This document shows, piece after piece, positions 1 to 19,634 of a stretch of 64,000 bases of DNA. Within the stretch, counting starts at the first letter, position 1, and each line of letters starts with the position of its first letter. Source of the stretch: Serinus canaria (taxonomy: Eukaryota; Chordata; Aves; Passeriformes; Fringillidae); assembly GCF_022539315.1 (NCBI RefSeq), contig NC_066338.1:2232001-2296000 (forward strand). Reading direction: 5' to 3'. The translations under genes were made by a program, and so were the position numbers. The notes below the pieces were generated by a model that worked only from the letters and a program-made list of their open reading frames with translations, had not been told where the DNA came from and did not search any database.

Positions 1-1082
1 CTGCGGGAAGTCTAAAAACTACATCCCTTTTCTTGAATTTATTTTTATTTTTCATGATTAAAGCCCGAGTAAAAAGAGACAAAAGGAGCCATTGTGTGAG
101 GGAAATGGAAAGCAAACATAAACCCTGAAGACATACGGAAAATCCTAAAACTATTATTATAAACAATATGAGCAATTAACTGGGGCAGTCACTGTTCGCT
201 GGTTAGCAGTTAGGACTGCTTTCCGTACAAAGTTTGGCTGAAAAGGAAATTAAATATTCATGACTTGTAGGCAGTTTATTTTAAAGTAGAAAAATGTTTG
301 AAACGCCACAACAGGAGCTATTACCATTGTTAGCATTCCCCACTTGGCATGCTCCCTGAAAGACTAATTCTTTGGGAATGTCATGAATGTCATACTTCAT
401 CGCTCCACTCTGCACAGGTGTTTAACCATATTGGAGGGGAGGAAGGCCATGACAAACATCACATCCTTTCAGTGCAGACGTGTAAACCAATGGGGCCTTC
501 AGCTGTTTGATCAGCTTTATTTTTAACTCTCCTAGAAACGTGGAGTTCAGGAATTTGTCCTTCTAGTCATTTGCTTAAGGTATGGTCAGAAATTGGGAAA
601 GACTGACTTGTGCCAAAAGACCAAAAGACTGACTTGTGCTAAAATCATGTAATGATTACAGCAAATGTAAATTATGGTTTGTTGAGAGTAAATGAATTTA
701 CAGATGCTGAGGATGTGGCCTTTTGGAAATAAGGACAAACAGAAATTATCTTTTCCACCTCTGTTTCTGATCTATCCTTCCCTGGACTACAGTTCACAGG
801 GGAGGAAGCAGAAAACTGTGTGGCTGCTGTTCCTCCTCTAACCTGTGCTTTTCCTCAGCAGCTAGTACACTACAATTGTAAAATGCCATTACTTCACACC
901 AAATTTACTGAAAAATGATGCTTACCTAAGTGGTGAATAATTGAGAACGCCTCAGTGCTAAATGGCACGTAGGTAGGTGTCCTTGCCCAGGATTTCTGAG
1001 CCTTGCTGTCCCATTTGCTGAGACAAAAAACAAAGCCCCTGAGCTGTGGTTTATGTGCTTTTTGCTTTGTCTGGGGGCACAG
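1..1082 (+). other. CALCRL: Last intron of CALCRL (3' part)
   Basis: This is non-coding sequence ending in a pyrimidine-containing stretch and an AG acceptor at 1081-1082, directly before the open frame of the terminal exon. Reading frames here are short and interrupted. I see no repeat family that I recognise and no RNA gene. The intron assignment follows from the exon call downstream; the donor exon lies outside the window. Confidence 0.75.
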
Positions 1083-1304
1083 GTGCAGGCAGTGCTGAGG
1101 AGGCACTGGAACCAGTACAAGATCCAGTTTGAGCACAGCTTCAGCCACTCAGACGCCATGCGCACGGCCTCCTACACCGTGTCCACCATCAGCGACGTGC
1201 AGGGCTACGGCTACAGCCATGACTGTGCTGGCGAACACCTCAATGGCAAGGGCTACCATGACATGGACAGCGTGGCACTCAAGACTGAGAAGCTCTATGG
1301 CTGA
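1083..1304 (+). CDS. CALCRL: Calcitonin receptor-like receptor, terminal coding exon (cytoplasmic C-tail)
   Basis: CALCRL is a class B (secretin family) G-protein-coupled receptor. With RAMP1 it forms the CGRP receptor and with RAMP2 or RAMP3 it forms adrenomedullin receptors at the plasma membrane. The exon encodes about 73 residues of the intracellular tail and ends at a TGA (1302-1304). It opens with [16 protein letters not shown], the conserved stretch after TM7/helix 8 in this subfamily. It continues with [20 protein letters not shown] and a final LKTEKLYG, the pattern of the CALCRL tail rather than of CALCR or other class B receptors. The start is set by the splice acceptor AG at 1081-1082; the preceding in-frame ATG at 1053 lies in the intron. 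No stop or frameshift is present and codon use is GC-rich at third positions, so this looks like an intact gene. All upstream exons are outside the window. Identification is from family knowledge, not a search. Confidence 0.87.
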
Positions 1305-1466: not shown

Positions 1467-4400
1467 TGCATATATACTTGTTTGTGTTATCTATACAGTA
1501 TGGACATCTGTACATATATATCTATATATGTATGTGCCTTTACACAGGGATACAAACTTTGCCTCTTCAGTTTCTACTGTGTAGACAAAGTTGGCAAATT
1601 TTTGTACAAAGGGAATCAATGAAGGATTTCTTATTTTCTTGGAAGTTTGTATAAGACTGTGCTGTGTTGAAGCCACATCATTTGCCTATAGAATCTTAGA
1701 GTGTAAATACCATACTCTGTTGTCTTAATTCAACCTAAAACAGAGCAAAGCAAAATGGTTTAAATAGGTGCAATAATAACAAGAAGTTTTCCAGGTTCTT
1801 TTTTTGGTCCAGCTTTCTTTCCTTTGGCCGTCAAAAAAGCCTGACAGGTAGTCTGAGGTAACAGATTCAAAGATAGATACTGCTGTTTTGGTTAAACAGC
1901 AGATTGACGTTTTGCTTTGGTTTGGCCAGTTTGTTTTCTTCCCACTGTTTTACACCAAGCACAGACACTACTTCCAGTGTGAGCCTTCATGTACTTCTGT
2001 ACTGCTATGTACTATCTTGCACCAAGATTTGAGCAATTTTATTTAAGCCATTTCAGGATATTCAGAAGTGTCTCCTTCTCCTGAATCATATGGAAGTTTC
2101 TTGGATTTAACAAAGACAGGACTGATGAGGCCTCACCGCCAGAGAGCAAAGGAGTAACCTGAGTCACTGTGAGTCCCTCCAGACACTCTTAGTAACTGCA
2201 GCTGGTGGAACTTTATTATGTGCTTAAGGAATCTACTCAGCTGGAGAAGGTCATGTACAGAATTCCTTGTGGCATTGTTCTGATTTTACTTTGATGTATT
2301 TCCCTGGCCATATGCTTGATAACTTACTCCTTCACTCTTGGGGCAAAGTTTGGGTTAATTTTGCTGCTGTTTTTGCTGTCTGAGGTGAGCGTGCAAGACT
2401 GAGCACAGTGCACATGTCATACTACCTTTAAAGCCCAGTATAAGTTTTGTATGATAAAGGTTAAAAACTTTAGGGATTGAGAATTTCAATATTGTTTTAG
2501 ATTGGTTGATTCTGAATCTCTGTCTCAGTTAATTAGCTAAGAGCAGTACTTTATATGTTGTTTCTTTGGTTCTGCTGGTGCATAACGGCCTCACTGAAAA
2601 CTAGGAGGCTGTCAGGAAGGTCTTGAGAAAATGTGTCTTTATAGAAACTTGTATTTTTCTTAAATCCTTATGCTTTAAAGAAATAGTAGTTTTGTTAGGT
2701 GAAATGACAAAAATGCTCAAGAATGAGGGCATGAAATGAGGTGAGCTCACTGAAAATTAAAAATGTAAGAAAAAATTTTATGCATTTCATTTGCAGATAA
2801 GTCTACTTAAAGTGGGGAAAAACCAAAATTAGGCAGAAGAAAAATTAGGTGGTGGAACTGTTTTGCTAATGAACTTATTACTGATGAATGCAGTCCAGTG
2901 AAAAAATTGGAAGACAGTTCTTTCTGGGACCAGTTTGAAATAATTTTGCATACAAAATTATTGTATACAAGCCACCTTGACTTTGACATTTAAACATTTT
3001 TGTCAGTAGTTTCTCTCTGTGCTTCAATAGTGTCTAGGTAATTTTCAGTGTTTATTACTTTGTGACTTCTTAAGGTGTTTAAAGCTTTGTACTTACAAAG
3101 AAAACATTAGGAGGATGTGGCAAGGTCCTGCCACTTGCACCTTTCTTTAGTTTTTTTGACAGTTCTTATGTCTGGAGTTTGAATATAGGAAGTGTTTTAT
3201 TATTGATACAGTTTCACAATATAGAATTTCAACTAGGATGCACAAATGAAGATTTCTTCTCTTCTGCAGGGCTGTCTGGTCAGTTGATGGGGATGATTTG
3301 AAGAATCTGTTGGATTGTGTAGAGTAGTGTGCGACCTGGCAATCAGATGTCACAGTCTCTTAAAATTTAAGAGTGACAGTAACAATGTCTGCTACAACAT
3401 GACTAGAGGTTATTTACAACTCTGCTTGCTGATCTTTGTAGTGTTACTTAACATTTGTGCCATGTTCTGAAGATATCAGTGGTGCAGAGAATCCCTGCTC
3501 CAGTGTAGCAGCTTTACAATTGTGGGACCAGATCATCAGCTGGTATAAATCTGTCTTGAGTTTCCTTTACACAATCGGCAGGTACCACTGAGACTCAAAG
3601 CCCAGACAGGTGTCTGTCCATTTAAATGTGCTGTAAACCATTTATGGCACATTATTAGACAATTATTTCATGGTACCTGGTGGATTGTTGTTGTAATTAA
3701 CAAATAGATGTTGGTTTAGAGTGTGATACAGTATTAGACTTTAATTAAGCTTCTTTCTCAGAGAGGCAGTTCAAATTTACCAGACTACAGATTTTGTCAT
3801 TTAATATATATTTCTATTAGAGAAACATGTAATTATAATTTAGGAGGGAAAATTGTTTTTACAGAAATTACCCTAATTCTAGGTGGACAATCACAGCTTC
3901 CTTCTAGGCACACACCTCCCCATCTTCACTTTGGAAAAGAAACACAGCCAGCTGGATGTGCAAGAAAATCTTTCTGGCAGTGAAGGGTCACATGGTATAG
4001 CAGAGCTGTATTTCCCCTCTCTTGCTGAGATTAGATAATCTGTTTTCTAATTTGCATTGGAAAATACCAATTCCTTGTTTTCCTACCTCACCTTTTTTCA
4101 GTTTCTACATAGCTAAGAGAAGGGTCTGCTTTTTAAAATGTTTTTCTGTCACCATAAGTTAAAATCAAATTTTTATGCTGATTTCTCATGGCTCTCTTCC
4201 ACTTTACAGAATGTTGTAGTCCATACCTGTCTTCTCTGGGATGGAAGTAAAATCTCTTTTGGTGGGGCTGTGGGATTCCTTTGAACATGCAGATTATTAT
4301 TTTTTTATTACGTGTTATTATTTGCTGGGGGTTTTTTTGGTTTTTTTAGTGTGGATTTATTGTATCAATCTACAGGGGCTACAGCAATAGTTGTCTTATA

Positions 4401-4475
4401 TTTTTTATCTGTAACACCAGCATGTTATGATTCAATGAGAGAAAATGTCTATTTTTAATGCTACTGTCTTCAAGT

Positions 4476-4481
4476 AATAAA
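4476..4481 (+). promoter_or_regulatory. Candidate polyadenylation hexamer
   Basis: AATAAA in the CALCRL 3' UTR, preceded by TTCAAGT. It may serve as an internal alternative site. Transcript ends are needed to confirm use. Confidence 0.35.
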
Positions 4482-4791
4482 TGGCTGCATTGCAGGGTCC
4501 CTCAGCTGGTTTTTTTAATGTTGGCATTTATGTTATTCAGTTTTTCATGGTGGTGATTTATAAGTGCATTTGGCTGTAGAAATGCTGCAACATGTACTCT
4601 TTTTGATGTCAAGAAACATTTGGGCTGGCAACCAGGCAACAGTCATTTATTGTGCTATGCAAATAAGATTAATATGCTTACACTAAGAAGAAAATGGAAA
4701 AAATGTGAAGTTATTTTTTTGGTTGTTTCATTTTCACCTTGTTCATATGAATCATGCATTTTAATTGCTGAGAAAAGTATTGTTTCTGATC

Positions 4792-4797
4792 AATAAA
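4792..4797 (+). promoter_or_regulatory. Candidate polyadenylation hexamer, best 3' end for CALCRL
   Basis: AATAAA is followed about 25 bp later by CTCTCTTGTTCTGT, a plausible U/GU-rich downstream element. This is the best-supported candidate for the end of the transcript. Confidence 0.45.
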
Positions 4798-4815
4798 ATA
4801 TTGCTCCATTTATTC

Positions 4816-5393
4816 ATCTCTCTTGTTCTGTAATATAACAAAGCTGATATAACAACTGGCTTTCACAGATGTCTTAACTCTCTGCTAGTTAAATATTAAC
4901 CCAGGGAGAAAGTAATTACATAGAGTTATTAATAATTATTGTGGTTTAAAGTGTTTTTCAATACTTATATTTAATACTAGAGTGCTGAATTTCTGGAGGA
5001 AGTTTGTACAGATAATATAAGACGACTGGACATAAAATTATTTAACTGAAAGTTTCATGTTCCTATTTCTTGTCTTCTGAATCCACCTTTTAATAAAAAG
5101 TTATTAATAGTTGCTTACATTAAGCCAAAATGTCTGTTTCATCAGAAACTAACAGCAGAGACGAAATTGAGTGTATCTATCTTCTTCATCCCATCAGTTG
5201 AGGTGGAGGTAGATAAGCAAACCTGATCTCAAATAAAAAAACCCAAGGAATATTTAACCATACCAGGGGATCTTAAATACTGGGTGTTAATACTGCTGTC
5301 TGCCTTTGCCCCTATTTAAAGTGTGCCAATATCCATCCAAGAAATGCACAATCTCCTGCCTCACTTCATGACTTCTCAACAGCAACCTGTAAT
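4816..5393. other. Intergenic AT-rich stretch
   Basis: I see no gene, RNA or repeat in this stretch apart from the distal polyA hexamer. It leads directly into the segment that recurs beyond the assembly gap. Confidence 0.5.
5092..5097 (+). promoter_or_regulatory. Candidate distal polyadenylation hexamer
   Basis: AATAAA within TTTTAATAAAAAG. It could mark a longer CALCRL isoform or be chance in AT-rich sequence. Confidence 0.25.
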
Positions 5394-5636
5394 TGCAGGT
5401 AGGTTTTTTTGAGCTCCAGTTCCTGGGACCAAGTGTCAGGCAGTAGAAGTTGTTACAGACTCTGAGTTTTGTCTGTTCCTTCGGTTCTTTACCAATATTC
5501 CAACTTACTGATTCTCTGTATGTACAGAGTCCATTTAACAATTATTCGGTTCTGTTATACAAGTAACTGTGGAGAAGAAGTAAATCCAATCCCCCAAATC
5601 CAAAGCTTCTTATTACAACATTTTATTCTAACTCAC
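5394..5636. repeat. Duplicated flank, copy A
   Basis: This segment of about 240 bp reappears almost unchanged at 11684-11928. By eye I count two substitutions (a G/T within ATTCNGTTC and an A/C within CTTCTNTT). It ends in ACTCAC, the left target duplication of the LTR that follows. The same flank resumes at 6652, after the LTR, with ACACAGCAG and leads into the first Sat1 monomer. Copy B has the uninterrupted site, so copy A is the filled allele for this LTR. Confidence 0.9.
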
Positions 5637-6646
5637 GGTCATCGTTTGAGCCTGGCACAATGCCAGTGCCCCCACGAGAATACCTCTTTCCCTGGCATCC
5701 ACTGTGAGATGTGATCAGAGACAGAGCAAAGGAGGCTTCAACTTGAGGTCGAAAAGGAAAAAAACTTTATTAACCTAAAGCTACAAAGAAAAACACACAG
5801 AACACATAGAACACAAGATGAAAACCTTCCAAATTTCTTCCTCCTCCCCCCAAAATTTCACCCCCTGGGGCCGAGGGGTCTCTTGAACAGAGATCATCTT
5901 CTTCTTCTTCTTCGAAGCGGAGGGCACCACCACCACCCCCCTCACCCGTCGTCTCTGTTCACACACCTCCACATCACCGCACTCTCCTGGCTCTGAGCCA
6001 TCGCCTCCCCCTAGAATGCAGTCTCTGTGTCACAGGAACACAAGGGGTTCTGCTGTGGCTATACAAGAAAAGTCCAGCCAAAGGCCACTCCATCATCTCC
6101 TCCCACCTAGGATTCTTCTCAACATCCTCTCAATCTCATCAACTTCAGGAAGAATCAGCATTTGCAAGGTTTCCATCCTCCCCAGAAGGGTTAAAAGTCC
6201 CAGGCCTGATGGTTTGCTTCATGAACTCCCACGCCTGGCTGCCCTGCTGGGCACCCCTCCCTTCTCCTTCACGCCGTCCGCGCTATCACAGGCACCGGCT
6301 CTGGCCCTCTCCCTCTCTCCAGGGGGGGGTAATGGGGGATGGCTGCCCAAAGCCCTCGCAATGTTCTCCTCCACCCTTGGGCCCAGGCCTGGTCTACCTC
6401 CCTCCAGCCGCATGGCTCCCCTCCCCCCCTGCCCAGCTCAGAGCTGGGCAGGGAGGATCTGGTCAGTTCAAAACCGGAACCCAAAGAGAGAAATTCCCCT
6501 GGGAGTTCACAGCTTTTAACCCCCTGTGTTCTCAGAGGCGTATCCATGCCCTCAGTGAACAAACCAGTTGCCAATATTAAAATCTGAACACCGATTGGCT
6601 TGACCACACCATCACAAAAAACTTCATTTCCTCTCAAACCACGACA
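5637..6646 (-). mobile_element. Solo LTR, about 1.0 kb, minus strand
   Basis: The insert is bounded by a 5-6 bp direct duplication (ACTCAC at 5631-5636 and 6646-6651), and the matching empty site is present at about 11920-11930. On the minus strand it starts TGTCGTGGTTTGAG, and an AATAAA lies at about 5764-5770 (minus strand, TTTATT on plus). No internal retroviral sequence is present, so it is a solo LTR produced by LTR-LTR recombination. The 6-bp duplication fits a class II (ERVK/beta-like) integrase. The far end reads GATGACC rather than a canonical CA, so the last bases are uncertain. Confidence 0.8.
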
Positions 6647-6651
6647 CTCAC

Positions 6652-6972
6652 ACACAGCAGTAGGAATGGATAGCTACAGTAGCATTTTCCAATGCAGTAT
6701 AGGTGTCCTTGTCAAACCAGCCCAAGTTTTCGCTGGTGCCAGCTTGGGTCTGGGAGGCATCCTGCACAATGCAGAATTTTAGGAGCCAGCTGGCCACTCA
6801 GGGCCACAGGACCCTGAACACCAACACTGGCCCTTTTCCTTGAGAAACTCATCAGCCAAGTTCATGATGGCAGATTGCAGGAGTTACATGGCACTGTCAA
6901 ACCAGCTCAAGTTGGCAGTGCTGTCAGCTTGGGTCTGGGAGGCATCCTGCTCAATGCAGAAGGTGTGCAGGT
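6652..6972 (+). repeat. Sat1 (190-bp satellite), segment 1
   Basis: This is the first monomers of a tandem repeat with a period close to 190 bp. Landmarks are CACTGTCAAACCAGCCC, GGTGCCAGCTTGGGTCTGG, GGCATCCTGCACAATGC, GGCCACTC..GGGCCACAGG and AACAAAACTCACCAG. Monomers differ by roughly 10-20%. The array is interrupted at 6972 by a solo LTR. Confidence 0.9.
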
Positions 6973-7344
6973 GTAATGATGACCACAAGGGTCTTAGGAT
7001 GAGGGAAGAGATGGAACCTTGACTCTGTGTTTCAAAAGGCTTGATTTATTATTTTATGATATATTAAAACTCCACTAAAAGAATAGAAGAAAGAATTTCA
7101 TCAGAGGGCTAGCTAAGAATAGAAAAGGAATGAATAACAAAGGCTCGGACTAGCCGAGAAAGTCTGACAGGTGGACTGTGATTGGCCATTACTTAGAAAC
7201 AACTACATAAGACCAATCACAGATCCACCTCTTGCATTCCATAGCAGCAGATAATGATTGTTTACATTTTTTTCTTGAAACCTCTCAGGTTCTCAAGAGA
7301 AAAAATCCTAAAGCAAAGATTTTTCAGAAAACATGGCTGAGACA
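6973..7344 (-). mobile_element. Solo LTR (372 bp), minus strand, with perfect 6-bp TSD
   Basis: The element starts TG and ends CA and is flanked by TGCAGG at 6967-6972 and 7345-7350. Its reverse complement is the same family as the 3' LTR at 14638-15025: shared GAAAAATC, TCTGCTGCT, ATTGGTC, GGCCAATCACAG, TATTCATTCCTTTTCTATTC and GACCCTTGTGG in the same order. The AT-rich stretch with AATAAT/AATAAA supplies the polyadenylation region. It sits inside a Sat1 monomer. Confidence 0.9.
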
Positions 7345-8594
7345 TGCAGGCAGCCGGCAACTCCAGGCCACAGGCCCCTCAACACTAACGCTGAACCTTT
7401 TCCTGGGGAAACAAAACTCACCAGACCAGGGTGCTGACGGCAAATTGCAGGAGGCACTTGGTACTGTCAAACAAGCCCGAGTTCCAAGTGGTGCTGGCTT
7501 CGGTCTGGGAAGGTGCTGGTTTCTGCCTCTTCGGGAGGCATCCTACACAATGCGGAATTTCAGCAGGTAGCCAGCCACTCTGGGCCACAGGCCCCCGAAC
7601 ACCAGTGCTGGCCCTTTTCCCTGGGAAACAAAACTCACGAGCCTAAGTTCCTGATGGCAGACTGCAGGAGGCACTTGGCACTGTCAAAGTAGCCCGAGTT
7701 GTAAGTGGTGCCGGCTTCGGTCTTGGAGGCATCCTGTGCAATGCGGAATTTTGGGAGCCAGCCGGCCACGCCGGGGGACAGGCCTCTGAACATCAATTCC
7801 GGCCCCTTTCTTGAGGAAACAATCCTCACCAACCCAGGTTCCTGATGCAGATTGCAGGAGGCACTTGGCACTGTCAAAGCAGCCTGAGTTGCAAGTGATG
7901 CCGCATTTGGTCTGGAAGCAATCCTGCACAATGTAGAATTTCAGCAAGCAGTAGACACTTCAGGCCACAGGCCCCTGAACACCAACACCGGCCCTTTTCC
8001 CAAGGAATCAAAACTCACCAGCCTAAGTTCCTGATGGCAGACTGCAGGAGGCACTCGGCGCAGTCAAAGCAGCCCGAGTTGGCACTAGTGCCAACTTGGG
8101 TCTGAGAGGCATCCTGCGCAATGTGTAATTTCATCCAGCAGTGGGCCAGTCAGGGACACAGGCCCCTGAGCACAAACACCGGCCCTTTACCCTGGGAAAC
8201 AAAACTCATCAGGAAGATTCCTGATGGAGGATTGCAGGAAGCACTTGGCATTGTTAAAACATCCTGAGTATGTCGTGGTGCCAGCTTGGGTCTTGGAGAC
8301 ATCCTGCGCAATGAGGAATTTCAGCAGGCAGCAGGTCACTCCGGGCCACAGGCCCCCGAACACCACCACCGGCTCCTTTCCTTGAAGAAGAAAACTCACC
8401 ATTTCCAGGTTCCTGATGGCAGATTGCAGGAGCCACTTGGCACTGTCAAACCAGCCAGACTTGGTATTGCTGCCAGCTTGGGTCTGGGAGGCATCTTACA
8501 CAATGTGGAATTTCAGCGGGCAGCCAGCTATTTTGGGCCACAGTCCCCTGAACACAAACGCCGGCCCTTTACCCTGGGAAACAAAACTCACCAC
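7345..8594 (+). repeat. Sat1 (190-bp satellite), segment 2
   Basis: About 6.5 monomers. Successive CTGTCAAA landmarks lie near 7681, 7870, 8060, 8250 and 8443, giving a spacing of 189-192 bp. Short open frames on both strands shift phase between monomers because 190 is not a multiple of three, so no coding role is suggested. Confidence 0.92.
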
Positions 8595-9165
8595 TGTGGG
8601 AGGAGACCCCAAGGACTTTGGGGTGGGGATGCCATGGGAGGACACTCTTGTGTGAACATCAATCAGCTGCGGCTCCCTCCCCTAGTTCTGGAAAGTTCTG
8701 AGTTCTCTCCTTACCCATTGGTTCATATTTTAACACCTCCCTCTTCCCCCTCTTTCATCATTTGAGTACCCCTAGTCACTCCACTCTGGCTCCTCCCCTG
8801 GTCCCCCTCTCGATTGGATCTGTGTACCCCAGACCCTCCTGCTTGTCACATTGTTATAAACCCTGGCTCTACCCCTGTTCTGGGCTTTTTGCCACCTGCT
8901 CCCTATCAGCCTGGTTGTGTCCCTGCTTTGCTCCTCTCTACCCCCCCGGACCCTTCCTGGACCCTCTGCATCGCCCTGAATAAACCTGGTTGGATTCCCG
9001 GCAGCGTGTGCAGAGCCCTCCTTCCTTTCCTAGCCGGCAAAGGAAGAGCTTATCCGGGACTGAGTGCAAGGTGGGCTGCAGAGGCAGTTCCCCTGGAGCT
9101 GGTCGCCCCGCCCCTGCCCAGGATTTCTCCCCCGCATGGAAGAAGTTGTGGCTCGGTTTCCCGCA
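8595..9165 (+). mobile_element. Solo LTR (571 bp), plus strand, with perfect 6-bp TSD
   Basis: The insert starts TGTGGGAGG, ends CCGCA and is flanked by CACCAC at 8589-8594 and 9166-9171. Promoter-like features are a TATAAA at about 8855 and an AATAAA at about 8979. The sequence is C-rich in U3. The six-base duplication indicates a class II ERV. No internal region remains. Confidence 0.88.
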
Positions 9166-10549
9166 CACCACCCCAGGTCTTTTATGTCAGAGCTCAGGAG
9201 GAACTTGGCACTGTCAAACAGCCCAAGTTGGGCCTGTGTTGCCAGCTTGGGTCCGGGAGGAATTCTGTTCAATGCAGAATTTCAGCAGACAGTGGGCAGC
9301 TCTGGCCCATAGTCCCCTGAACACCAACGCCGGCCCTTTACCATGGGAAAAAAAACTCACCAGCCCAGAATTGAGATGGCTGATTGCGGGAGGTACTCAA
9401 CACTCTTAAACCAGCAAGGGTTGGTACTACTGCCCAGCTGGGTCTGGGAGGCACCCTGTGCCATGCAGAATTTCATCAGGCAGCCGGTCAGTCAGGGACA
9501 CAGGCCCCTGAAAACCATCGTCAGCCCTTATCCTGGGGAAATAATACTCATCAGCCAGGTTTCTGAAGGCAGATTGCAGGAGGAGCTTGGAACTGTCAGA
9601 CCAGCCTGAGTTGGTACTTGCATGCACTTTGCATGGAGAGGCATTCTGCGCAATGCAGAATTTCAGCAGGGAGACAGCCACTCTAGGCCACAGGCCCCTG
9701 CACACCACCGATGACCCTTTTCCCGAGGAAATAAAACTCGTCAGCCAAGTTCCTGATGGCAGATTGCAGGAGGCATTTGGCACTGTCAAAGCAGCCCGAG
9801 TTGGCAGGGGTGGTTTCTTGGGTCTGGGAGGCTTCCTGCACAATGTGGAATTTCAGCAGGCAGCTGGCCGCTCTGGGCCCAGAGCCCCCTGCACACCAAG
9901 GATGGCCTGTTTAACAGGGAATTAAAACTCATCAGCCCAGGTTCCTGATGGTGGATTCCATGAGGCATTTGGCAAGGTCAAAAATGCCCCAACTGGTACT
10001 GGTGCCACCTTGGGTCTGGAAGATATTCTGCGCAATGCAGCATTTCAGTCAGTAGGTGGCCACTCCGGACCACAGGCCCCAGAACACTACTGCTGGACCT
10101 TTTCCCTGGTAAACAAAACTCACCAGACCAAGTTCCTGATGACAGATTGCAGGAGGCACTTGGCACTGTAAAAGCAGCCCGAGTTGGCAGTGCTGCTGTT
10201 TGGGTCTTGGAGTCATTCTGCACAATGCGGGATTTCATCAGGCAGCCAGCCAGCCACTCATGGCCACAGGCCCCTAAAGACATACGCCAGCCCTTTTCCC
10301 GGGAATGCCAAACTTATCAGCCCAGATTCCTGATGGCAGATTGCAGGAGGCACTTGGCCCTGTCAAACCAGCCCAAGTGTGTAGGGGTGCTAGCTCGAAT
10401 CTGGGAGGCATCCTGTACAATGCAGAATTTCTACAGGTAGCCAGCCACTCCAGGCCACAGGTCCCTGAGTACAAACGCCGGCTTTTTTCCATGAGAAAAA
10501 AACTCATCAGCCAAGTTTCTGAGGGCAGATTGCAGGAGGCAGTTGGCAA
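9166..10549 (+). repeat. Sat1 (190-bp satellite), segment 3
   Basis: About seven further monomers with the same landmarks and period. Several carry small indels (for example, monomers near 9600 and 9960), showing imperfect homogenisation. The array is cut at 10549 by another LTR. Confidence 0.9.
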
Positions 10550-11172
10550 TGTGTTCCAGATTGCAAGGCAAGTTATATTCTATTACCATTTGTATGGCAG
10601 ATGTCTTGTGTCAAGTGGGCAATTCTCCTTCTCTCTCTCCCTGAGTGATCATAATCACTCCACCCTCCACAGGGGACATCTGCTGATAACAAGCTATTGA
10701 ATGTCACTGCATGACTGATAAGAACTGTAACATCCCATTGTGAGATGCTCCACCCAGAAGGAGGAGCCAAGCATTGCTACCCAGATATAACTTGGAGATT
10801 CTGAAGCACCAGCGCAGCTTCCCACTAGATTCCCCAGAGGAACAGCAGCTGCTTCTACTTCCATGGCTCTGCGGAAGAAGAATACACCCTTTTTTCTAAA
10901 GGACTCCCCTGCTCCAATAGAACCACATCTGACACTTCGGGAAGACAGCAGCCACTTTTCCAACTGCTACCAGTACCATGACCAAAAATGTTGAGTTCTG
11001 ACTCTGTCAGTGTTGTTAAAGAACTGTTATTTCCTGCTCCCATATTTTTTGCCTGAGAGCCCCTAATTTGAAATTCATAAAAAATCGGAGGGGTAGGGAG
11101 GGTTTGCATTCTCCATTTCAAGGAAGGCTCCTGCCTTCGTTGGCAAGCACCTATCTTTCCAAACCAAGACAC
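10550..11172 (+). mobile_element. Probable solo LTR (about 620 bp)
   Basis: Non-satellite sequence starts TGTGTTCCAGATTGC and ends AAGACA, after which Sat1 resumes with CACTGTCAAACC. The insertion therefore replaces no satellite sequence, as expected for a transposed element. A clear target duplication is not visible (GGCAA on the left; GACAC or CACTG on the right), so the exact ends and the ERV class are open. No AATAAA is obvious on the plus strand. Confidence 0.6.
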
Positions 11173-11183
11173 ACTGTCAAACC

Positions 11184-11683
11184 NNNNNNNNNNNNNNNNN
11201 NNNNNNNNNNNNNNNNNNNNNNNNNNNNNNNNNNNNNNNNNNNNNNNNNNNNNNNNNNNNNNNNNNNNNNNNNNNNNNNNNNNNNNNNNNNNNNNNNNNN
11301 NNNNNNNNNNNNNNNNNNNNNNNNNNNNNNNNNNNNNNNNNNNNNNNNNNNNNNNNNNNNNNNNNNNNNNNNNNNNNNNNNNNNNNNNNNNNNNNNNNNN
11401 NNNNNNNNNNNNNNNNNNNNNNNNNNNNNNNNNNNNNNNNNNNNNNNNNNNNNNNNNNNNNNNNNNNNNNNNNNNNNNNNNNNNNNNNNNNNNNNNNNNN
11501 NNNNNNNNNNNNNNNNNNNNNNNNNNNNNNNNNNNNNNNNNNNNNNNNNNNNNNNNNNNNNNNNNNNNNNNNNNNNNNNNNNNNNNNNNNNNNNNNNNNN
11601 NNNNNNNNNNNNNNNNNNNNNNNNNNNNNNNNNNNNNNNNNNNNNNNNNNNNNNNNNNNNNNNNNNNNNNNNNNNNNNNNNNN
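11184..11683. other. Assembly gap of exactly 500 N
   Basis: The run of 500 unknown bases is a conventional placeholder for a gap of unknown size. Left of it is Sat1; right of it the sequence restarts inside a copy of the 5394-5636 flank. Any open frame crossing it is an artefact. Confidence 0.98.
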
Positions 11684-11942
11684 GCAGGTAGGTTTTTTTG
11701 AGCTCCAGTTCCTGGGACCAAGTGTCAGGCAGTAGAAGTTGTTACAGACTCTGAGTTTTGTCTGTTCCTTCGGTTCTTTACCAATATTCCAACTTACTGA
11801 TTCTCTGTATGTACAGAGTCCATTTAACAATTATTCTGTTCTGTTATACAAGTAACTGTGGAGAAGAAGTAAATCCAATCCCCCAAATCCAAAGCTTCTT
11901 CTTACAACATTTTATTCTAACTCACACACAGCAGTAAAAAAG
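11684..11942. repeat. Duplicated flank, copy B
   Basis: Near-identical to 5394-5636 but with an uninterrupted ACTCACACACAGCAG where copy A has its LTR. It continues to AAAAAG at 11937-11942, the left target duplication of the ERV that follows. In copy A the corresponding site (about 6661-6668) has no ERV. Confidence 0.9.
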
Positions 11943-12140
11943 TGTCACCGACATGTTCTATGAAAAATCCTTTCCTTAGGATTTTTCCCTCCTGAGAAGC
12001 TGAGAGGCCTCAGGAACAAACTGTAAACAATTCTTATCTGCTGCTGTGGAATGAATGCACCAGTGGATCTGGGACTGGCCGTTAATTGGAAACAACAAGA
12101 TGAGACCAATCACAGTTCACCTGCCCAGACTGTCTCGGTC
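11943..12140 (+). mobile_element. 5' LTR of the ERV, truncated and rearranged
   Basis: It aligns with the first 199 bases of the 3' LTR. Bases 12077-12107 are inverted relative to 14773-14803. Similarity stops at TCGGTC (12140), so the R/U5 portion of about 190 bp is missing. The sequence then folds back on itself (see findings). Confidence 0.85.
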
Positions 12141-12190
12141 TGGACAGGTGAACCTTTTGAAAAGACCTTTTGAAAAGTCTCCGAGACAAG

Positions 12191-12445
12191 ATGTCCGGAA
12201 GTCTTTGCAGCTCAGAGCAGCCTGCTGAAGCTCAGAGGACACTGTCACAAGATACTGTTTACACTTCTCTTCCTAAAGATGCTGCCCTTCGTGCAAGGTG
12301 GGCTAGGATGTGGAAGAGGGTGCCTACGGAGGCAGAGGTTCCATTCTCTTTCAGAGATGAAATAATTATTAACAGCTGGCAAATATGGGGTCATGAATAT
12401 AGAATTCCTATGGTGAAGAGACATTTCTATGAGTTTTTCAGATGA
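12191..12445 (+). CDS. Unrecognised 84-residue ORF inside the ERV
   Basis: This ATG-initiated frame starts MSGSLCSSEQ and ends KRHFYEFFR. It is rich in Trp and Arg in its second half (ARWARMWKR, NSWQIWGHEY). Position just after the 5' LTR suggests a gag-leader or matrix-like remnant, but I see no diagnostic motif. It is followed in another frame by a further open stretch (about 12509-12720), which could mean a frameshift. It may not be translated. Confidence 0.3.
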   Translation: MSGSLCSSEQPAEAQRTLSQDTVYTSLPKDAALRARWARMWKRVPTEAEVPFSFRDEIIINSWQIWGHEYRIPMVKRHFYEFFR

Positions 12446-12711
12446 ACAAAATACTATGGCTTTTTCCCTGATCTGTTTTATTCCCTTGATTCCTACGTAG
12501 GGGATTGCATGGCATTGGTTTTTGAGGATGCTTTGAACCATGATGGATTTGGAACTCCTCGCAGCTATCCGGCATTCAAAATTCTCTTCCCAATTCTGAA
12601 ATTGAAAGAATATTCATTCGAGAAGATTGCGAAATTAAGAGGTTTTTCGCTGGAGCTGGCAAGAGTGGAATTTGAGCAAAACCACGGCCTGCAGGTTCCC
12701 AGCCCCCCCGA

Positions 12712-13647
12712 ATGGGGGGGGGGGGGGCGAAGCTTTGCCTGCAGCAGAAGAAAGGTTTCTTTCTGTGCCTTTGGAGCATGCTCCGACGGAACCGCTTCCC
12801 CCCCCCCCATCGCTGCTCTCAGGGGGGAGGTGAATTGGCTCCGCCGCACGAGCCGGAGCCCTGGGCCCCACCTCAGCCCGCCCCGCGGGAGGCGCCGGTC
12901 CCCGCGGCCCCGCCGCAGCCCGGACCGGACCCGACTCGCCGCCTCCAGCAGAGTTTGTCGGCGTTCCCGTGGCAGAAGCATCGCCTCTCGCGGCTTCGCC
13001 CAAGTTGCTCAGCGACGCACTCGACAGCAGCGATGATCGACGGCAGCCCGTCCCCGAGTCGGGACCTGCCGCCCCTGTCTTTTCTCCTTCTGCATCGCAG
13101 CCAACAATTGCGTTCGCAGCGTGTGCCGGCAGGGGTCGATCCCGCGGCCCTGCTGCCCCCCGCGCCTCCCACGTCGGCTCCACCAGCTTTGCTGTCTGCG
13201 CCTGCGCTGAAGCTTCCGGTACACGGAGAATACGCGGCTGCTGTCCCCAGCCCGGCGGGCGATGCACTCCCCCCGGCTTTGCAGCCCCCACTGACCACCA
13301 CGGCGGCCTTGCCTTTGCCTGCCGCGCCGGTGGAGGAAGCTGAGGTTGAGAACCACCAAACGGAACCGCCCGTGGCCCCGCCGCCCCTCGCGGCGGCTGC
13401 CGCAACGCCTGCGATCAGCCTGGATTCCCCCCCAGCTTTTCGGGCTGTCCCGAGGTTGCCCCTGCGGGGGAGCTGGGACAGGGGAAGGGGCCTCGCCTTC
13501 GCCTGCCCCTCCGTGGGGGCTTGTGGCTCGACAGCTGACTGCGGGCTCAGCCCGTCTGCCTGCTTTCAAACTCAGCGTTTTTCGCGGGCCGATTCGGATT
13601 TGGTTCGGAGGTTCCCGCTGGGCGTTGGAATGCCTGACTCCCCTTGA
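12712..13647 (+). CDS. GC-rich Pro/Ala-rich ORF (311 codons) inside the ERV
   Basis: The frame begins in a run of G and encodes a low-complexity Pro/Ala/Ser-rich product with blocks such as APPQPAPREAPVPAAPPQP and PPAPPTSAPPALLSAPALK, then a more mixed C-terminus. The opposite strand is also open for more than 250 codons, as expected from GC-rich composition, so openness alone is weak evidence. It could be a degenerate gag linker/proline-rich domain or sequence captured from a host GC-rich locus. I do not recognise it. Confidence 0.3.
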   Translation: MGGGGAKLCLQQKKGFFLCLWSMLRRNRFPPPHRCSQGGGELAPPHEPEPWAPPQPAPREAPVPAAPPQPGPDPTRRLQQSLSAFPWQKHRLSRLRPSCSATHSTAAMIDGSPSPSRDLPPLSFLLLHRSQQLRSQRVPAGVDPAALLPPAPPTSAPPALLSAPALKLPVHGEYAAAVPSPAGDALPPALQPPLTTTAALPLPAAPVEEAEVENHQTEPPVAPPPLAAAAATPAISLDSPPAFRAVPRLPLRGSWDRGRGLAFACPSVGACGSTADCGLSPSACFQTQRFSRADSDLVRRFPLGVGMPDSP

Positions 13648-14637
13648 GCGCCCCAGCGGCGTTCGGGAGGTGGCTCCTGAGCCTTCTGCCTCTGGTCCCC
13701 AGCCCGCAGGGGGTGGGGGTGGTACTGGTACTGAGGGGCAGAAAGAGGGAACACCTTTTGTATTTGTGTTGCAGAGGCAGGAGAAACAGTGGAAAGTGAG
13801 CATCGCTCACTTGCTCTGGGGACAAAGCACCCCCAGATCTGGGGTGATGATCCTTGGGAAAGCTTCTCTTCCCCAACTGCTGGTCTGCACCGGTTCAGAG
13901 GGGATGAAGCATTCAGTCACTCGTGCTGCCCAAGCATTTACAGCAGGGTGCCGGGTTGAGAGAACACAGAGCCCTCTCCGTGGGCCGGGTCTGGGCCATT
14001 TGGCTCGGTTCCCTGGGCCAGGGCCTCCGTGCGGCCAGCACCGGAGGCTTGGGGGCTTTGCTGCCACCGTTCTGTAGGCCAGGTCTGGGATGCCTGATCC
14101 TTCCGTCAGGACCTGGGCCACCATTCTGTAGGCCGAGTCTGGGATCCCTGTTCCTTCCATGAGGGCCAGGGCCCCCGCAGGGCCTCAGCGGCTCCTCTCT
14201 GCTGCTGCTCTTTCGGACAACAACAACAACAACAACAAAAAACACAAAAGAAGAGTTGAAAGAGCTAGCAGCTCAAAAAGCATTGAAAAGCAAAATTTTT
14301 GCAAGCCTGTTTCAGGACAAAAAAGGACTTTCAGCGATGTCAAAAAGGAACATCTTCAGTTTGGACTTTTTCCTGAAACTCAGCTGTTTGGACTTGAAGC
14401 AATGAAATTTCTTTGCACTGTTTCTGCATTTCCTTATATCTTAAGATTGTTTTGGTGATGTGATGGGAATTTGGTGTTTTGCAGGTGAAGAATCTCCCTG
14501 ATGGTTCCACACCAGCACTTGATTGATGTTTTGATTGGCAACACAAAACCTCTCAGGTGCTTGTTCTTTCCTCTGCATGACCCCGCAGATGAAATTGCAA
14601 GCATCTTTTAAATTTATTTAAAATAAAAAGGGTGAGA

Positions 14638-15025
14638 TGTCACCGACATGTTTTATGAAAAATCCTTTCCTTAGGATTTTTCCCTCCTGAGAAGCTGAGA
14701 GGCCTCAGGAACAAACTGTAAACAATTCTTATCTGCTGCTGTGGAATGAATGCACCAGGTGGATCTGGGATTGGTCTCATCTGGTTGTTTCCAATTAACG
14801 GCCAATCACAGTTCACCTGCCCAGACTGTCTCGGTCAGAGACAAGCCTTTCTTATTCATTCCTTTTCTATTCTTAGCTTAGCGTTCTGATGAAATCCTTT
14901 CCTCTATTCTTTTAGTATAGTTTTAATATATTATATATCATAAAATAATAATCAAGCCTTCTGATACATGGAGTCAACTTTCTTGTCTCTTCCCTCATCC
15001 TGGGACCCTTGTGGACAATACCACA
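14638..15025 (+). mobile_element. 3' LTR of the ERV, 388 bp, complete
   Basis: It begins TGTCACCGACATG and ends GGACAATACCACA. Order of landmarks: CCTTTCCTTAGG, CTGCTGCTGTGG, a CCAAT-like pair (ATTGG..CCAAT), GACTGTCTCGGTC, TATTCATTCC, an AT-rich polyadenylation region (CATAAAATAATAAT) and CTTGTGGAC. It matches the solo LTR at 6973-7344 throughout, including the orientation of the segment that is inverted in the 5' LTR. Confidence 0.92.
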
Positions 15026-15031
15026 AAAAAG

Positions 15032-15570
15032 GATAGCTACAGTAGCATTTTTCAATGCAGTATAGGTGTCCCTGTCAAACCAGCCCAAGTTTTCGCTGGT
15101 GCCAGCTTGGGTCTGGGAGGCATCCTGCGCAATGCGGAATTTTCGGAGCCACTCCGGGCCACAGGCCTCTGCACAGAAACACCAGCCCTCCTTCCTGGGA
15201 AACAAAACTCACCCGCCCAGGTTCCTGATGGCAGATTGCAGGAGCCACTCTGCACTGTCAAACCAGCCCAAGTTTGCAGTGGTGCCAGCTTGGGTCTCAG
15301 AGGCATCCTGCACAATGCAGAATTTCAGGAGCCAGCCGCCAGCTGGCCCCTCTTGTGGCCACTCCGGGCCACAAGACCCTGAACACCAACGCTGGCCTTT
15401 TTCCATGGCAAGCAAAACTCACCAGTCCAGGTTCCTGATGGTAAATTGCAGGATTCACTTGGCACTGTCAAAGCAGCCTGAGTTGGCAGTGGTGCCGGCT
15501 TGGGTCTGGGACGCATCCTGCACAATGCAGAATTTCAGCAGGCAACCGGCCACTCCAGGCTACAGGCCCC
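15032..15570 (+). repeat. Sat1 (190-bp satellite), segment 4
   Basis: Resumes with GGATAGCTACAGTAGC, the same leader that opens segment 1 at 6669, and then about 2.7 monomers. The shared leader confirms that segments 1 and 4 begin at the same point of the same locus. After the first monomer the two arrays are no longer collinear. Confidence 0.9.
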
Positions 15571-15954
15571 TGTGGTATTCACATGCCCTCTGAACAGAGA
15601 GAAGCTGTGAGACAAGCAGAGAAGAAGGAAAACACAACTCTTATCTCGCTTGCTGTGCCTGTGTTGTGCTAAAGTAGAATGCAATATGGAGATTGTTTAG
15701 TGAGGATGTTTTGTTCCCTTGGCCTATCAGGGCCAAGAAGTGTGTGTGTGTGGGACTGTCACAGGATAGTCAGGAGAGAATCAGAGATGAGTGCAGTTCT
15801 GTGCAGTTGTGAGCAAGAGTGAGTGCCTGGCAGATTCAGTTTAGATGAAATGTACACAGTGCAGTATAATAAAGTAATTCATTACCCTTCTGATGATGTA
15901 TTCAGATGCATCATTCTCTCTCCCCTTCATCGGAGTCATCTTTGATTTACTATA
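15571..15954 (+). mobile_element. Solo LTR (384 bp), plus strand, with 6-bp TSD
   Basis: Starts TGTGGTATTCACATGCC and is flanked by GGCCCC (15565-15570 and 15955-15960). It contains AATAAA at about 15868 followed by GTAATTC. Its last bases read ATA instead of CA, perhaps a mutation. The insertion splits the Sat1 motif CAGGCCCCTGAACACC. Confidence 0.85.
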
Positions 15955-15977
15955 GGCCCCTAAACACAAACACTGGC

Positions 15978-16437
15978 TGTGGGGGGAAAGGTGCAAGATG
16001 CGGAGGTTCAGGGACATCACACGACAACCAATATGATCCAGTGAAGCCAAATTTATTATCCCTAAAAAGACTGTATTTATAATAATTCTCTACTGTCCAC
16101 ACATCTCTAGCTAATACATGATTGGCTAGGCCTAGCTGTTCACGCGTCTAAGAGAGGATGCTGATCGGATCATCTAATTTTCACGCATCTGGCTGTGGTT
16201 TTCTATCCCACCCATGAACTGTCTTTTTCCTCACTTTCCCAAGCTCACTGACAAACTTGCTGAGTCCGTTTGACTCTTCTTCTTGTATCTTTTTCAAGGA
16301 TATACCGACCCCATTTTCTGTGTATGTCCATTATTGTTTGTGAACGTGTCCATTGTCCCAAGCAGGCTGGATTGTGCATCGGCTGAATATGGCCATTGTT
16401 TCTCAAAAACTCCTCAATCTGCAACAAATCCTCAACA
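15978..16437 (-). mobile_element. Solo LTR (about 460 bp), minus strand
   Basis: On plus it runs from TGTGGGGGG to CTCAACA; on minus it starts TGTTGAGG and ends CCCCCCACA. A minus-strand AATAAA lies at about 16050 (TTTATT on plus). The flanks ACTGGC and ACCAGC are possible decayed 6-bp duplications (4 of 6 match). Only 23 bp of Sat1 separate it from the LTR at 15571-15954. Confidence 0.75.
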
Positions 16438-17646
16438 ACCAGCCATTTTCCCAGGGAAATAAAACTCATCCACCAGGTTCTTGAAGGCCGATTGCAGGAG
16501 GCACTTGGCCCTGTCAAACCAGCCCGAGTTGCCACTGGTGCCAGCTTGGGTCTAGGAGGCATCCTGCGCAATGCAGAATTTCAGCAGGCAGGTGGCCACT
16601 CGGGGCCACAGGCCCCTCCACACCAACGCTGGCCCTCTTTCCTAGGAAACAAAATTCATCACCCCGCGTTCCTGATGGAAGATTGCAGGAGCAACTTTGT
16701 GCTGTCAAACCAGCCCAAGTTTGCACCTGTGCCAGCTTCGGCCTTGGAGGCATCCTACTCAATGTGGAAGTTCTAAAGGCATCAGGTCACTCCGGGTCAC
16801 AGGCCAGTGCACACCAATGCCGGCCCTTTTCCCTGGGAAACAAAACTCACCTGCCCGCATTCCTGATGGCAGATTGCAGGAGCCACTTGGCACTGTCAAT
16901 CCAGCCCGAGTTGCAAGTGGTGCCACCTTGGGTCTGGAAGGCACCCAGCCAATGCGGAATTTTAGGAGCCAGGCGGCATCTCTGGGCCTCAGCCCCCCAA
17001 ACGCCAATACTGGCCCTTGTCCCTGGGAAACAATACTTCACCACCCGGATTCCTGATGGAAGATTGCAGGACCCACTTGGCATTCTCAAACCAGCCCAAG
17101 TTGCAAGTGGTGCCAGCTTTGGTCTGGGAGGCATCCTTTGCAATGCGGAATTTTAGGAGCCAGCCAGGCACTTCAGGACACAGGCCCCCGAACACCAACG
17201 CCGGCCCTGTTCTTTGGGAAACAAAACTCACCCGCCCAGATTCCTGATGGCAGATTGCAGAAAACACGTGGCGCTGTCAAACCGGCCCAAGTTGTAAGTG
17301 GTTGCTGCTTGGATCTTGGAGGCATCCTGTGTAATGGGGAATTTTAGGAGCCATCCAGCTGCTTCGGGCCACAGGCCCCCAAACGCCAGCCCTGTTTCCT
17401 TTGGACAAAAACCTACCCATCCAGATTCCTGATGGCAGAATGCAGGAGCCACTTAGCACTGTCAAGGAGCTGAGTTGCAAGTGGTGCCAGATTGGGTCTT
17501 GGAGGCATCCTGCACAATGCGGGCTTTTAGGAGCCAGCCAGCCACTCTGGGCCACAGGCCCCTGAACCCTAACGTCAGTCTTTTTCCCTGGGGAACAAAA
17601 CTCACTAGCTCAGGTTCCTGCGTTCAGTTTACAGGAGCCACTTGGC
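16438..17646 (+). repeat. Sat1 (190-bp satellite), segment 5
   Basis: About 6.3 monomers with standard landmarks, ending in CAGGAGCCACTTGGC where a large provirus begins. Monomers in segments 4 and 5 mostly carry AATTTTAGGAGCCAG in place of the AATTTCAGCAGGCAG of segments 2 and 3, so the two arrays have begun to form separate subfamilies. Confidence 0.9.
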
Positions 17647-17649
17647 TCT

Positions 17650-18536
17650 TGCTGTCTCTCTGACATACTGTGTCTGCTTTCCAGGTTATGCTACCAATGT
17701 ACGATGAGTCCTAAAAAATTCACGACGATACTACGGAACTCTCCTGATTAAGACCCTTGAAAGACTGTCATGAGTCACCAATGTGAAAGGCGGTCTGAAG
17801 TTCCCCTCATTTGCCTTTTGACCATCCCCAGGACAGACACTGGGACCCTGAGGACCCTGATCGAAATTCTGGCCTGCGGGTGGTAGATGAACACCAGAAA
17901 TCCTGAGGCCCCTGAGCAGAATTCTGGCCTGCCAAGTGATTGTTCGCAGCTGTGTCTACAGTGACTGCTTCTAGCAGGGCCTGCCAAGAGGCCATGCTCC
18001 CCATATGCTTGCACCTGCTTGGCCACACCAGCCCAGGAATCTTCCCACCTCTTCGCCAGATGAACTTGCTGGGGACACTGTAGTAGCCACCCCATGGAAA
18101 ATCCTTCATCTGCTCCACTACCACCGTGAGGGACGGAGATTGAAGCCCCCCTCCCAAGGCCTGAGGCTGAGACGCCCGTAATTCTGATCCAGGGATGCTG
18201 GCCTGACTGAAGCAGGATGCCTGCTAAGTGTTGCCTGCAGATGTGTTCACTGGACTTAGACTGGTTTCTCATAGAAACCAGTCTTGAAACAATGGGTCCC
18301 ACTCACTGCTGATGTTGACTTATCCTGCTGAGAACATGGACTGTCTGTACCCATCTTCAATACCTTTTTCCCCTCAGCAATTTCAATAGACTTATTCTTT
18401 ATTGTATCTCTTCCCCCCCTCAGCAATGGACTATAATAGAACCTTGAGTAAACCAGGAGTTTGAGATCTCCCCTAGCCGAACTCCATTGGCTGGACTACG
18501 AGGACTTCATCTCTCTACGTTTGGTAGCTATTCTCC
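17650..18536 (+). mobile_element. 5' LTR of the provirus
   Basis: Matches about 27740-28620 collinearly. Shared landmarks include GACCCTTG.AAGACTGT, CGGTCTGAAGTTCCCCTC, GAATTCTGGCCTGCC, CTTCGCCAGATGAACTTGC and TGTTGCCTGCAGATGTG. The first 250 bp differ a good deal more from the 3' copy than the next 400 bp do. It is cut at 18536 by the nested LTR. Confidence 0.8.
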
Positions 18537-19160
18537 TGTCCTGGTTCAGGGCAAATTTTGGAAAGAACCCCCAAAGCAGCTCCACTAGGAAAGCAGATTC
18601 ATTTGGCCCCTCCCCCCAATGAGTCTGGGAGAAAATACCTCCTTGGAGAAAAGTGAAAAAAACCTGTTTATTAAACAATAAAACCCCTTGCTGCTCCACA
18701 AGAGATGACAAACTGAGAAAGTCCCCTCCCCAGGTTGCAGTTCAGCTTACTCAGTGTCTTATCAGTCCCTCCGGTGCTGGAAATGTTGTGGGCCAGGCCC
18801 AGCCCGGTGGGCCAGAGGTAGCTGCTGGTGCTCTGCTGGGTGTTCAGTCCAGAGCAGGTTTAAATAGGTCCAAAGAAAAGGGAAAAAAGAAAAAAACACT
18901 CAGTCCAGGGAACTTCTTTGCCTCAGCTAGCTAAAACTAACTACAAGCAAAGGAGAGCTCTGTCCTGCTGTCTGTTCATTCACAGACAACACAGTCCAGG
19001 AGCGGGAATGTGGAGGAGTGAGTGCAGTGTCTGAAAACAAACTGCACTCTTCTTCTCTCACCCCTTCACTCTCTGAAACAAGTCTTAAAGTTGCAAAACA
19101 TATTATTCAGCATAAACAGAACAAGACGACTGGGGATAAAAGCATCATGTAGTCAAGCTA
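18537..19160. mobile_element. Nested LTR inside the provirus
   Basis: Begins TGTCCTGGTTCAGG, absent from the corresponding part of the 3' LTR region. It has polyadenylation-like AATAAA on both strands near 18665-18680, so the orientation is not settled. The right end merges into a pyrimidine microsatellite and cannot be placed exactly; no target duplication is seen. Confidence 0.6.
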
Positions 19161-19167
19161 GGGGAAC

Positions 19168-19634
19168 TCCCTCTCCCTCTCTCCTCTCCTCTCCTCTCCT
19201 CTCCTCTCCTCTCCTCTCCTCTCCTCTCCTCTCCTCTCCTCTCCTCTCCTCTCCTCTCCTCTCCTCTCCTCTCCTCTCCTCTCCTCTCCTCTCCTCTCCT
19301 CTCCTCTCCTCTCCTCTCCTCTCCTCTCCGCTCCTCTCCTCTCCCTCTCCTCTCCTCATCCTCCTCCTCTCCTCTCCTCTCCTCTCCTCTCCTCTCCTCT
19401 CCTCTCCTCTCTCATCTCTCCTCTCCTCTCCTCGCCTCCTCTCCTCTCCTCTCCTCCTCCTCTCCTCTCCTCTCCTCTCCTCTCCTCTCCTCATCCTCGT
19501 CCTCTCCTCTCCTCCTCCTCTCCTCTCCTCTCCTCCTCCTCTCCTCTCCTCTCCCTCTCCTCTCCTCTCCTCTCCTCTCCTCTCCTCTCCTCTCCTCTCC
19601 TCTCCTCTCCTCTCCTCTCCTCTCCTCTCCTCTC
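19168..19634. repeat. (CTCTC)n pyrimidine microsatellite, about 465 bp
   Basis: An almost pure pentanucleotide array of CTCTC/TCTCC on the plus strand (all purine on the minus), with CTCCTC and CTCAT interruptions mostly in the second half. It reads open in several frames (Leu/Ser/Pro or Glu/Arg repeats), which is a composition effect. It separates the nested LTR from the gag remnant. Confidence 0.97.

What the first reader, a model, noticed from the sequence alone, without database searches (positions are those of the whole stretch)
5394..15570. Same locus present twice around a 500-N gap, with reciprocal ERV insertions
The flank 5394-5636 and the leader of the first Sat1 monomer recur at 11684-11936 and 15032. 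Copy A holds a 1.0-kb solo LTR (TSD ACTCAC) where copy B is empty; copy B holds a 3.1-kb ERV (TSD AAAAAG) where copy A is empty. By eye the shared flank differs at about 2 of 240 bases. This looks like two alleles placed in series by the assembler, or a very young tandem duplication. If allelic, it is a locus with two segregating ERV insertions next to CALCRL.
Basis: partly seen in the sequence, partly recalled or inferred. Interest (0 to 1): 0.75.

Follow-up and report, generated by a model that had tools for sequence, protein, structure and literature searches.

The report
Two haplotypes probably assembled in series
A short stretch of bird DNA beside the CALCRL gene appears twice around an assembly gap, most likely because both parental versions, each with its own retrovirus-derived insertion, were laid end to end; this is a known kind of assembly error and not a new biological system.

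Summary
Window 5395-5636 recurs at 11684-11925 with 2 mismatches in 242. The second copy starts at the first base after the 500-N gap. Copy A carries a 1,010-bp LTR where B has the intact empty site; its target duplication is CTCAC (5 bp), not ACTCAC. Copy B carries a 3.08-kb LTR element (AAAAAG both sides) where A is empty, but A's site differs at 3 of 6 bases. Past the insertions the copies share only about 130 bp. After that the old 190-bp arrays hold no allelic monomers: the best A-B monomer pair after the first is 83.9%.

No other pair in 264 kb of scaffold (5 gaps, all 500 N) reached 97% over 150 bp. The flank was found at two places in the genome, the 2 kb to its left at one. This fits a heterotype false duplication better than a real tandem duplication, but reads are needed to decide. 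The copies must also differ by an array rearrangement, and the right-hand divergence and LTR-A age hint at haplotypes older than 0.8%. The artefact is ordinary. The two candidate insertion polymorphisms, 4 kb past CALCRL, can be genotyped.

The parts
945..1304 (+). Stop-to-stop ORF holding the last coding exon of CALCRL (C-terminal tail and stop)
   Evidence: phmmer of 1050-1301 hits PDB 6e3y chain R, calcitonin gene-related peptide type 1 receptor, E 5.1e-29; PF00002 matches on the + strand 5-14 kb to the left of the window start
5395..5636 (+). Copy A of the shared euchromatic flank
   Evidence: 240 of 242 identical to 11684-11925
5632..5636 (+). CTCAC target-site duplication, left copy, of the A LTR
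5637..6646 (-). Solo LTR present only in copy A; lacks about 0.3 kb relative to aligned relatives
   Evidence: 81 matched pieces from the 40 scored of 1743 candidate places, longest pieces at most 95%; internal deletion at a 15-bp overlap; termini
6647..6651 (+). CTCAC target-site duplication, right copy
6652..6783 (+). Copy A leader and start of the first 190-bp monomer, shared with B (8 mismatches in 132, 3 of them in the ERV-B target 6663-6668)
6695..10552 (+). Copy A 190-bp satellite array (17 profile hits, whole or partial), interrupted by other DNA
   Evidence: nhmmer, TRF; monomers about 75% alike
11184..11683 (.). 500-N gap
   Evidence: all 5 gaps in the 264 kb read are 500 N
11684..11925 (+). 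Copy B of the shared flank; starts at the first base after the gap
11926..11942 (+). Copy B continuation up to the ERV-B insertion, ending in the left AAAAAG duplication; with 11684-11925 it forms the uninterrupted empty site for the A LTR
11943..15025 (+). LTR element present only in copy B; 5' LTR part 11943-12146, 3' LTR 14638-15025
   Evidence: LTR comparison; no Pfam hit in 15 of 15 internal ORFs of 90 aa or more
15026..15031 (+). AAAAAG target-site duplication, right copy
15032..15146 (+). Copy B leader and start of the first monomer, homologous to 6669-6783
15064..17646 (+). Copy B 190-bp satellite array (10 profile hits), interrupted by other DNA at about 15573-16441

Best explanation
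This is most likely a heterotype false duplication at the boundary between the CALCRL euchromatin and a satellite block. The contig left of the gap follows one parental haplotype (A: flank, solo LTR, 190-bp array). The contig right of the gap follows the other (B: flank, LTR element, a different stretch of array). They were laid in series with a 500-N gap instead of being recognised as overlapping. Shown: the two copies, the two precise insertions with reciprocal empty sites, the position at the gap, and no other such pair found nearby. Inferred: that the copies are allelic; that the overlap to the left of 5395 was collapsed or trimmed, leaving about 242 bp; and that the haplotypes also differ by loss or gain of several kb of old satellite monomers.
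For: Flank 2/242 mismatches and two genomic places. The 2 kb to its left was found once. Each insertion has an empty site in the other copy. With its inversion allowed for, the B element's LTR parts differ by 2 substitutions and 1 indel in about 200 bp, so it need not be older than the split. Of 5 gaps in 264 kb, only this one has a same-strand pair of at least 97% over 150 bp, and no inverted pair reached 95%. Other local pairs outside the CCTCT microsatellite lie at 85 to 96%. Published signs of false duplication include a gap between the copies on one scaffold (PMC9516828, passages) and haplotype contigs misplaced in the primary assembly (PMC8081667, passages). LTR retrotransposons make up 23.5% of long-read insertions and deletions in crows (PMC7341801, passages), and 655 ERVK solo LTRs are polymorphic among 19 zebra finches (PMC11009239, passages).
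Against: Coverage, k-mer and linked-read tests could not be run. The arrays share no allelic monomer after the first: the best of the other A-B pairs is 83.9% over a monomer, with a local piece of 89.5% over 86 bp, so a further rearrangement must be assumed. The right side differs more than the left: 8/132, or 5/126 outside the target site, against 2/242 (Fisher p 0.005 and 0.049; my first counts of 7/132 and 4/113 gave 0.011 and 0.08). The A LTR has 18 private differences in 992 columns, and the scored copies reach only about 95.6% over the long piece (96% over 222 bp), which is old for a 0.8% split, although 18 is an upper bound. A common divergence of about 2% suits the left flank and a right count of 4/113 but leaves the LTR count at p 0.013. 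Copying of satellite segments also occurs in this block.
Confidence: 0.77

Rival explanations
1. Real tandem duplication: the edge of the euchromatin and the start of the array were duplicated on one chromosome, each copy then gained its own LTR insertion, and the array of at least one copy was rearranged. The junction is hidden in the gap.
For: Composite satellite blocks nearby recur at 85 to 96%. Both insertions would postdate the duplication, which explains the reciprocal pattern. The higher divergence on the right and the apparently old A LTR leave room for a real age. A contig start inside the unit is expected here too, so the position at the gap does not decide.
Against: Needs a duplication on top of every event that the allelic reading needs. 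The stretch 3400-5394 was found once, so the unit would have to begin close to 5395 or the rest of it would have to be unassembled. The flank is the only pair of at least 97% found in 264 kb.
Confidence: 0.17
2. Homotype duplication: one haplotype, with the contig start repeated from a dead-end branch of the assembly graph, the differences being read errors.
For: The contig start coincides with the overlap, as described for branch overlaps (PMC8081667 figure legend).
Against: Two whole LTR insertions with target duplications and different arrays cannot be read errors.
Confidence: 0.03
3. Misjoin with a different locus that happens to carry a similar satellite border.
For: 190-bp arrays occur in several places of the block.
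Against: The flank is not part of the satellite and was found only at these two places.
Confidence: 0.03

Closest known systems
Heterotype false duplication (Vertebrate Genomes Project; PMC8081667, PMC9516828)
   Same: Near-identical copies on one scaffold with an assembly gap between them; structural differences between the copies; repeat-rich place.
   Different: Only 242 bp plus about 130 bp are left in common, because insertions and array differences interrupt the copies. Coverage and k-mer criteria are untested here.
Polymorphic solo LTR and LTR-element insertions of songbirds (PMC11009239, PMC7341801)
   Same: LTR with target-site duplication against an empty site.
   Different: Here inferred from one assembly; no population data. 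The A LTR has a 5-bp duplication and the B element matched no Pfam family. Whether either is ERVK was not tested.
Structurally different pericentromeric haplotypes (recalled from human centromere work, no call)
   Same: Linked flank with different arrays beyond it.
   Different: No evidence on recombination or centromere position here.

Membership tests
Heterotype false duplication | Gap between the duplicated pair on one scaffold | tested here: met
   500 N at 11184-11683; copy B starts at the next base
Heterotype false duplication | Divergence at the scale of heterozygosity | tested here: inconclusive
   2/242 on the left (95% interval 0.1 to 3.0%) meets it; 8/132 on the right (5/126 outside the target site) is higher; arrays not alignable as alleles
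Heterotype false duplication | Half read depth over each copy | not testable with these tools
   no reads held
Heterotype false duplication | One-copy (heterozygous) k-mers and discordant linked reads | not testable with these tools
   no reads held
Real tandem duplication | Reads or contig spanning both copies | not testable with these tools
   no reads held; in this assembly the gap lies between the copies
Retroviral-type LTR insertion, copy A | Target-site duplication and an intact empty site in the other copy | tested here: met
   CTCAC twice in A, once in B
Retroviral-type LTR insertion, copy A | TG...CA termini and further copies in the genome | tested here: inconclusive
   begins TGTCGTGG and ends GATGACC, so the last base is not A; all 7 aligned relatives end ATGACA and 6 of 7 start TGTC; further copies are many
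Retroviral-type LTR insertion, copy B | Two LTRs, TG...CA, target duplication | tested here: met
   TGTCACC...CCACA, AAAAAG both sides; the 5' LTR is incomplete and partly inverted
Endogenous retrovirus with coding genes, copy B | gag, pol or env domains between the LTRs | tested here: not met
   15 of 15 internal ORFs of 90 aa or more without a Pfam hit at E 0.01; shorter ORFs not scanned

The most novel reading that the evidence does not exclude
The two copies are deeply diverged haplotypes of a heterochromatin border, held apart by the satellite block. Their arrays share almost no monomers and the A insertion is older than the flank suggests, while the euchromatic edge has been made alike again by exchange that stops at the insertions. 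CALCRL would then carry two long-lived structural haplotypes just past its 3' end.
Probability: 0.15. Interest if true: 0.4.

Novelty: new member of a known kind. Interest (0 to 1): 0.17.

Why it matters
For users of this assembly the region should be flagged: distances, copy numbers and satellite estimates across 5395-17646 are unreliable, and one of the copies probably belongs in an alternate assembly. If the copies are allelic, the bird is heterozygous for two LTR insertions about 4 kb past the CALCRL stop codon, which PCR can genotype. The case also suggests that a short overlap interrupted by insertions can go unnoticed; how this assembly was purged is not known to me.

Tried and rejected
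Tried: matching array monomers between the copies to find allelic pairs, none found after the first (15 of 17 profile hits in A and 9 of 10 in B were used, the short end pieces at 7345-7393, 10482-10552 and 17581-17649 were left out, and three were trimmed). Looking for further haplotypic pairs at the other gaps: 0 of 4 at 97% over 150 bp, with flanks of at most 20 kb, 11 kb at one. Testing whether the inverted order of 75-, 439- and 484-bp arrays around the gap at C27:2341018 is a second false duplication: 92.9% at one junction, so not allelic at this scale. Rfam: 0 matches at gathering scores in the window. Literature on the satellite: 'Tgut191A' 0 papers; '191 bp' with songbird terms 1 paper, listing only; '190-bp' with centromere and zebra finch 1 paper, on the duck, passages seen. 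I take no family name for the satellite from this. The search on contig-end trimming gave listings only and is not used.

Considered and rejected: homotype duplication as the whole explanation; dispersed repeat; chance. Dating of the A LTR is inconclusive: 40 of 1743 candidates were scored and 7 relatives aligned.

Not answered: whole-genome searches with the B LTR, the leader, the satellite and the right-hand stretch 17647-18560. That last stretch proved to be mostly an LTR-like repeat (17655-18536), so it is no unique right flank.

Full report
What is there. The window lies at C27:2232001-2296000 of a 1.05-Gb genome in 684 sequences. The stretch 5395-5636 recurs at 11684-11925 with 2 substitutions in 242 bp and no gap. 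A search of the whole genome with 5394-5636 returned these two places only. The 2 kb to the left (3400-5394) was found once; that search skips very common words, so absence is not absolute. The second copy starts at the first base after a 500-N gap. All 5 gaps in the 264 kb read here are exactly 500 N, so the true distance between the contigs is unknown.

The insertions. In copy A the flank ends in CTCAC, then comes 5637-6646, then CTCAC again. Copy B reads through with one CTCAC. Seven relatives elsewhere in the genome, about 1.3 kb long where complete, show the ends: 6 of 7 start TGTC (the seventh match begins inside the LTR) and all 7 end ATGACA; by eye 3 of 7 have exact 5-bp duplications. 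The A copy starts TGTCGTGG, ends GATGACC and lacks about 0.3 kb at a 15-bp overlap. In copy B an element of 3.08 kb sits at 11943-15025 between AAAAAG repeats. Its 3' LTR is 388 bp. Its 5' LTR is represented by about 204 bp and contains a roughly 36-bp inverted stretch. With that allowed for, the two differ by 2 substitutions and 1 indel in about 200 bp. None of 15 internal ORFs of 90 aa or more has a Pfam hit (6, 9), so I describe it as a probably non-autonomous LTR element. Copy A is empty there, but the six target bases read GGAATG against AAAAAG. Since both repeats of B agree, that difference was in B's target before the insertion or arose in A.

Beyond the insertions. The copies share a leader and the first part of a 190-bp monomer: 8 mismatches in 132 columns, 3 of them in the target site. 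Then they part. Of the 15 monomers used in A and 9 in B, A1 and B1 match at 91.5% over 118 bp; no other A-B pair exceeds 83.9% (A14-B3), and the mean of the 135 pairs is 74.7%. Local pieces reach 89.5% over 86 bp. The monomers within each array are as diverged (means 74.5 and 76.7%), so the arrays are old and each monomer is recognisable. If A and B carried the same array as alleles, many pairs near 99% would be seen. So one haplotype lacks what the other shows, or the visible parts do not overlap: A's array runs into the gap, while B's goes on to 17646, where an LTR-like repeat begins (17655-18536, 87% like 27743-28653).

Allelic or duplicated. In 264 kb this is the only same-strand pair found of at least 97% over 150 bp (exact 28-base seeds, listing capped at 20,000 pieces). 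No inverted pair reached 95%. Other repeated pieces of the block lie at 85 to 96%, apart from a CCTCT microsatellite. False duplications of the heterotype kind are described as arising where the haplotypes are more diverged, with a gap between the copies on one scaffold (PMC8081667 and PMC9516828, passages). PacBio gaps in a bird-of-paradise assembly seemed mainly caused by LTR elements and secondarily by satellites (PMC7757076, passages). This is such a place. A real tandem duplication needs the same insertions and array change plus the duplication. I put the allelic reading at 0.77 and a real duplication at 0.17. No read data were available, so this is a judgement and not a test.

Results that do not fit well. 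The right side differs more than the left: 5/126 outside the target site (Fisher p 0.049), 8/132 with it (p 0.005), against 2/242; an earlier, shorter count gave 4/113 (p 0.08) and 7/132 (p 0.011). The A LTR carries 18 private changes in 992 columns and a tree branch of 2.6%, like the 7 relatives (8 to 28 private changes). The scored copies reach at most about 95.6% over the long piece (40 of 1743 candidates scored). If those changes all followed insertion, the flanks should differ by about 4%, and 2 of 242 would be unlikely (p 0.003). A divergence of about 2% leaves 2/242 and 4/113 acceptable (p 0.14 and 0.19) but the LTR count low (p 0.013). The 18 are an upper bound, since a closer source copy may exist unscored. 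The alternative, older haplotypes with the euchromatic edge made alike by exchange, is kept as the novel case. The recount on the right side (8 instead of 7, 5 instead of 4) did not move my odds.

Surroundings. The ORF at 945-1304 is the end of CALCRL (PDB 6e3y, E 5.1e-29), with class B receptor matches at C27:2217980, 2219519 and 2226579 on the same strand. Copy A's flank begins 4.1 kb past the stop codon. The gene lies in about 83 kb of DNA almost free of tandem repeats, between satellite blocks, as assembled.

Verdict. The kind of thing is known; the interest is modest and mainly practical.

Noticed in passing
window 6695-64000 and C27:2296001-2396000: A long mosaic of tandem repeats (190, 189, 30, 75, 439 and 484 bp) follows the CALCRL euchromatin; a 30-bp to 75-bp block also lies to the left of it, so as assembled the gene sits on an island of about 83 kb between satellites.
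   Followed up: partly
C27:2313000-2347000, also 2146060-2146312 and 2287746-2287997: The order 75-439-484 recurs inverted on the far side of the gap at 2341018 (one junction 92.9% alike), and the 30-to-75 junction recurs at 85% on both sides of the island: composite satellite blocks seem to have been copied whole.
   Followed up: partly
window 12069-12123 against 14756-14811: The 5' LTR part of the B element holds a roughly 36-bp stretch inverted relative to the 3' LTR, and next to it a 16-base fold-back with one mismatch; template switching is my guess.
   Followed up: partly
window 17655-28653: Older proviral stretch: LTR-like ends 87% alike, with stop-to-stop ORFs between them that resemble retroviral pieces by eye (recalled motifs, not searched).
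   Followed up: no
window 6983-7345: Piece inside array A that matches the 3' LTR of the B element inverted at 82%.
   Followed up: no
window 19170-19634: About 92 copies of CCTCT.
   Followed up: no
C27:2369086-2370608 and 2394480-2396000: 95.6% same-strand pair across the gap at 2384502, cut by the end of the fetched stretch; could be another haplotypic or real duplication.
   Followed up: no
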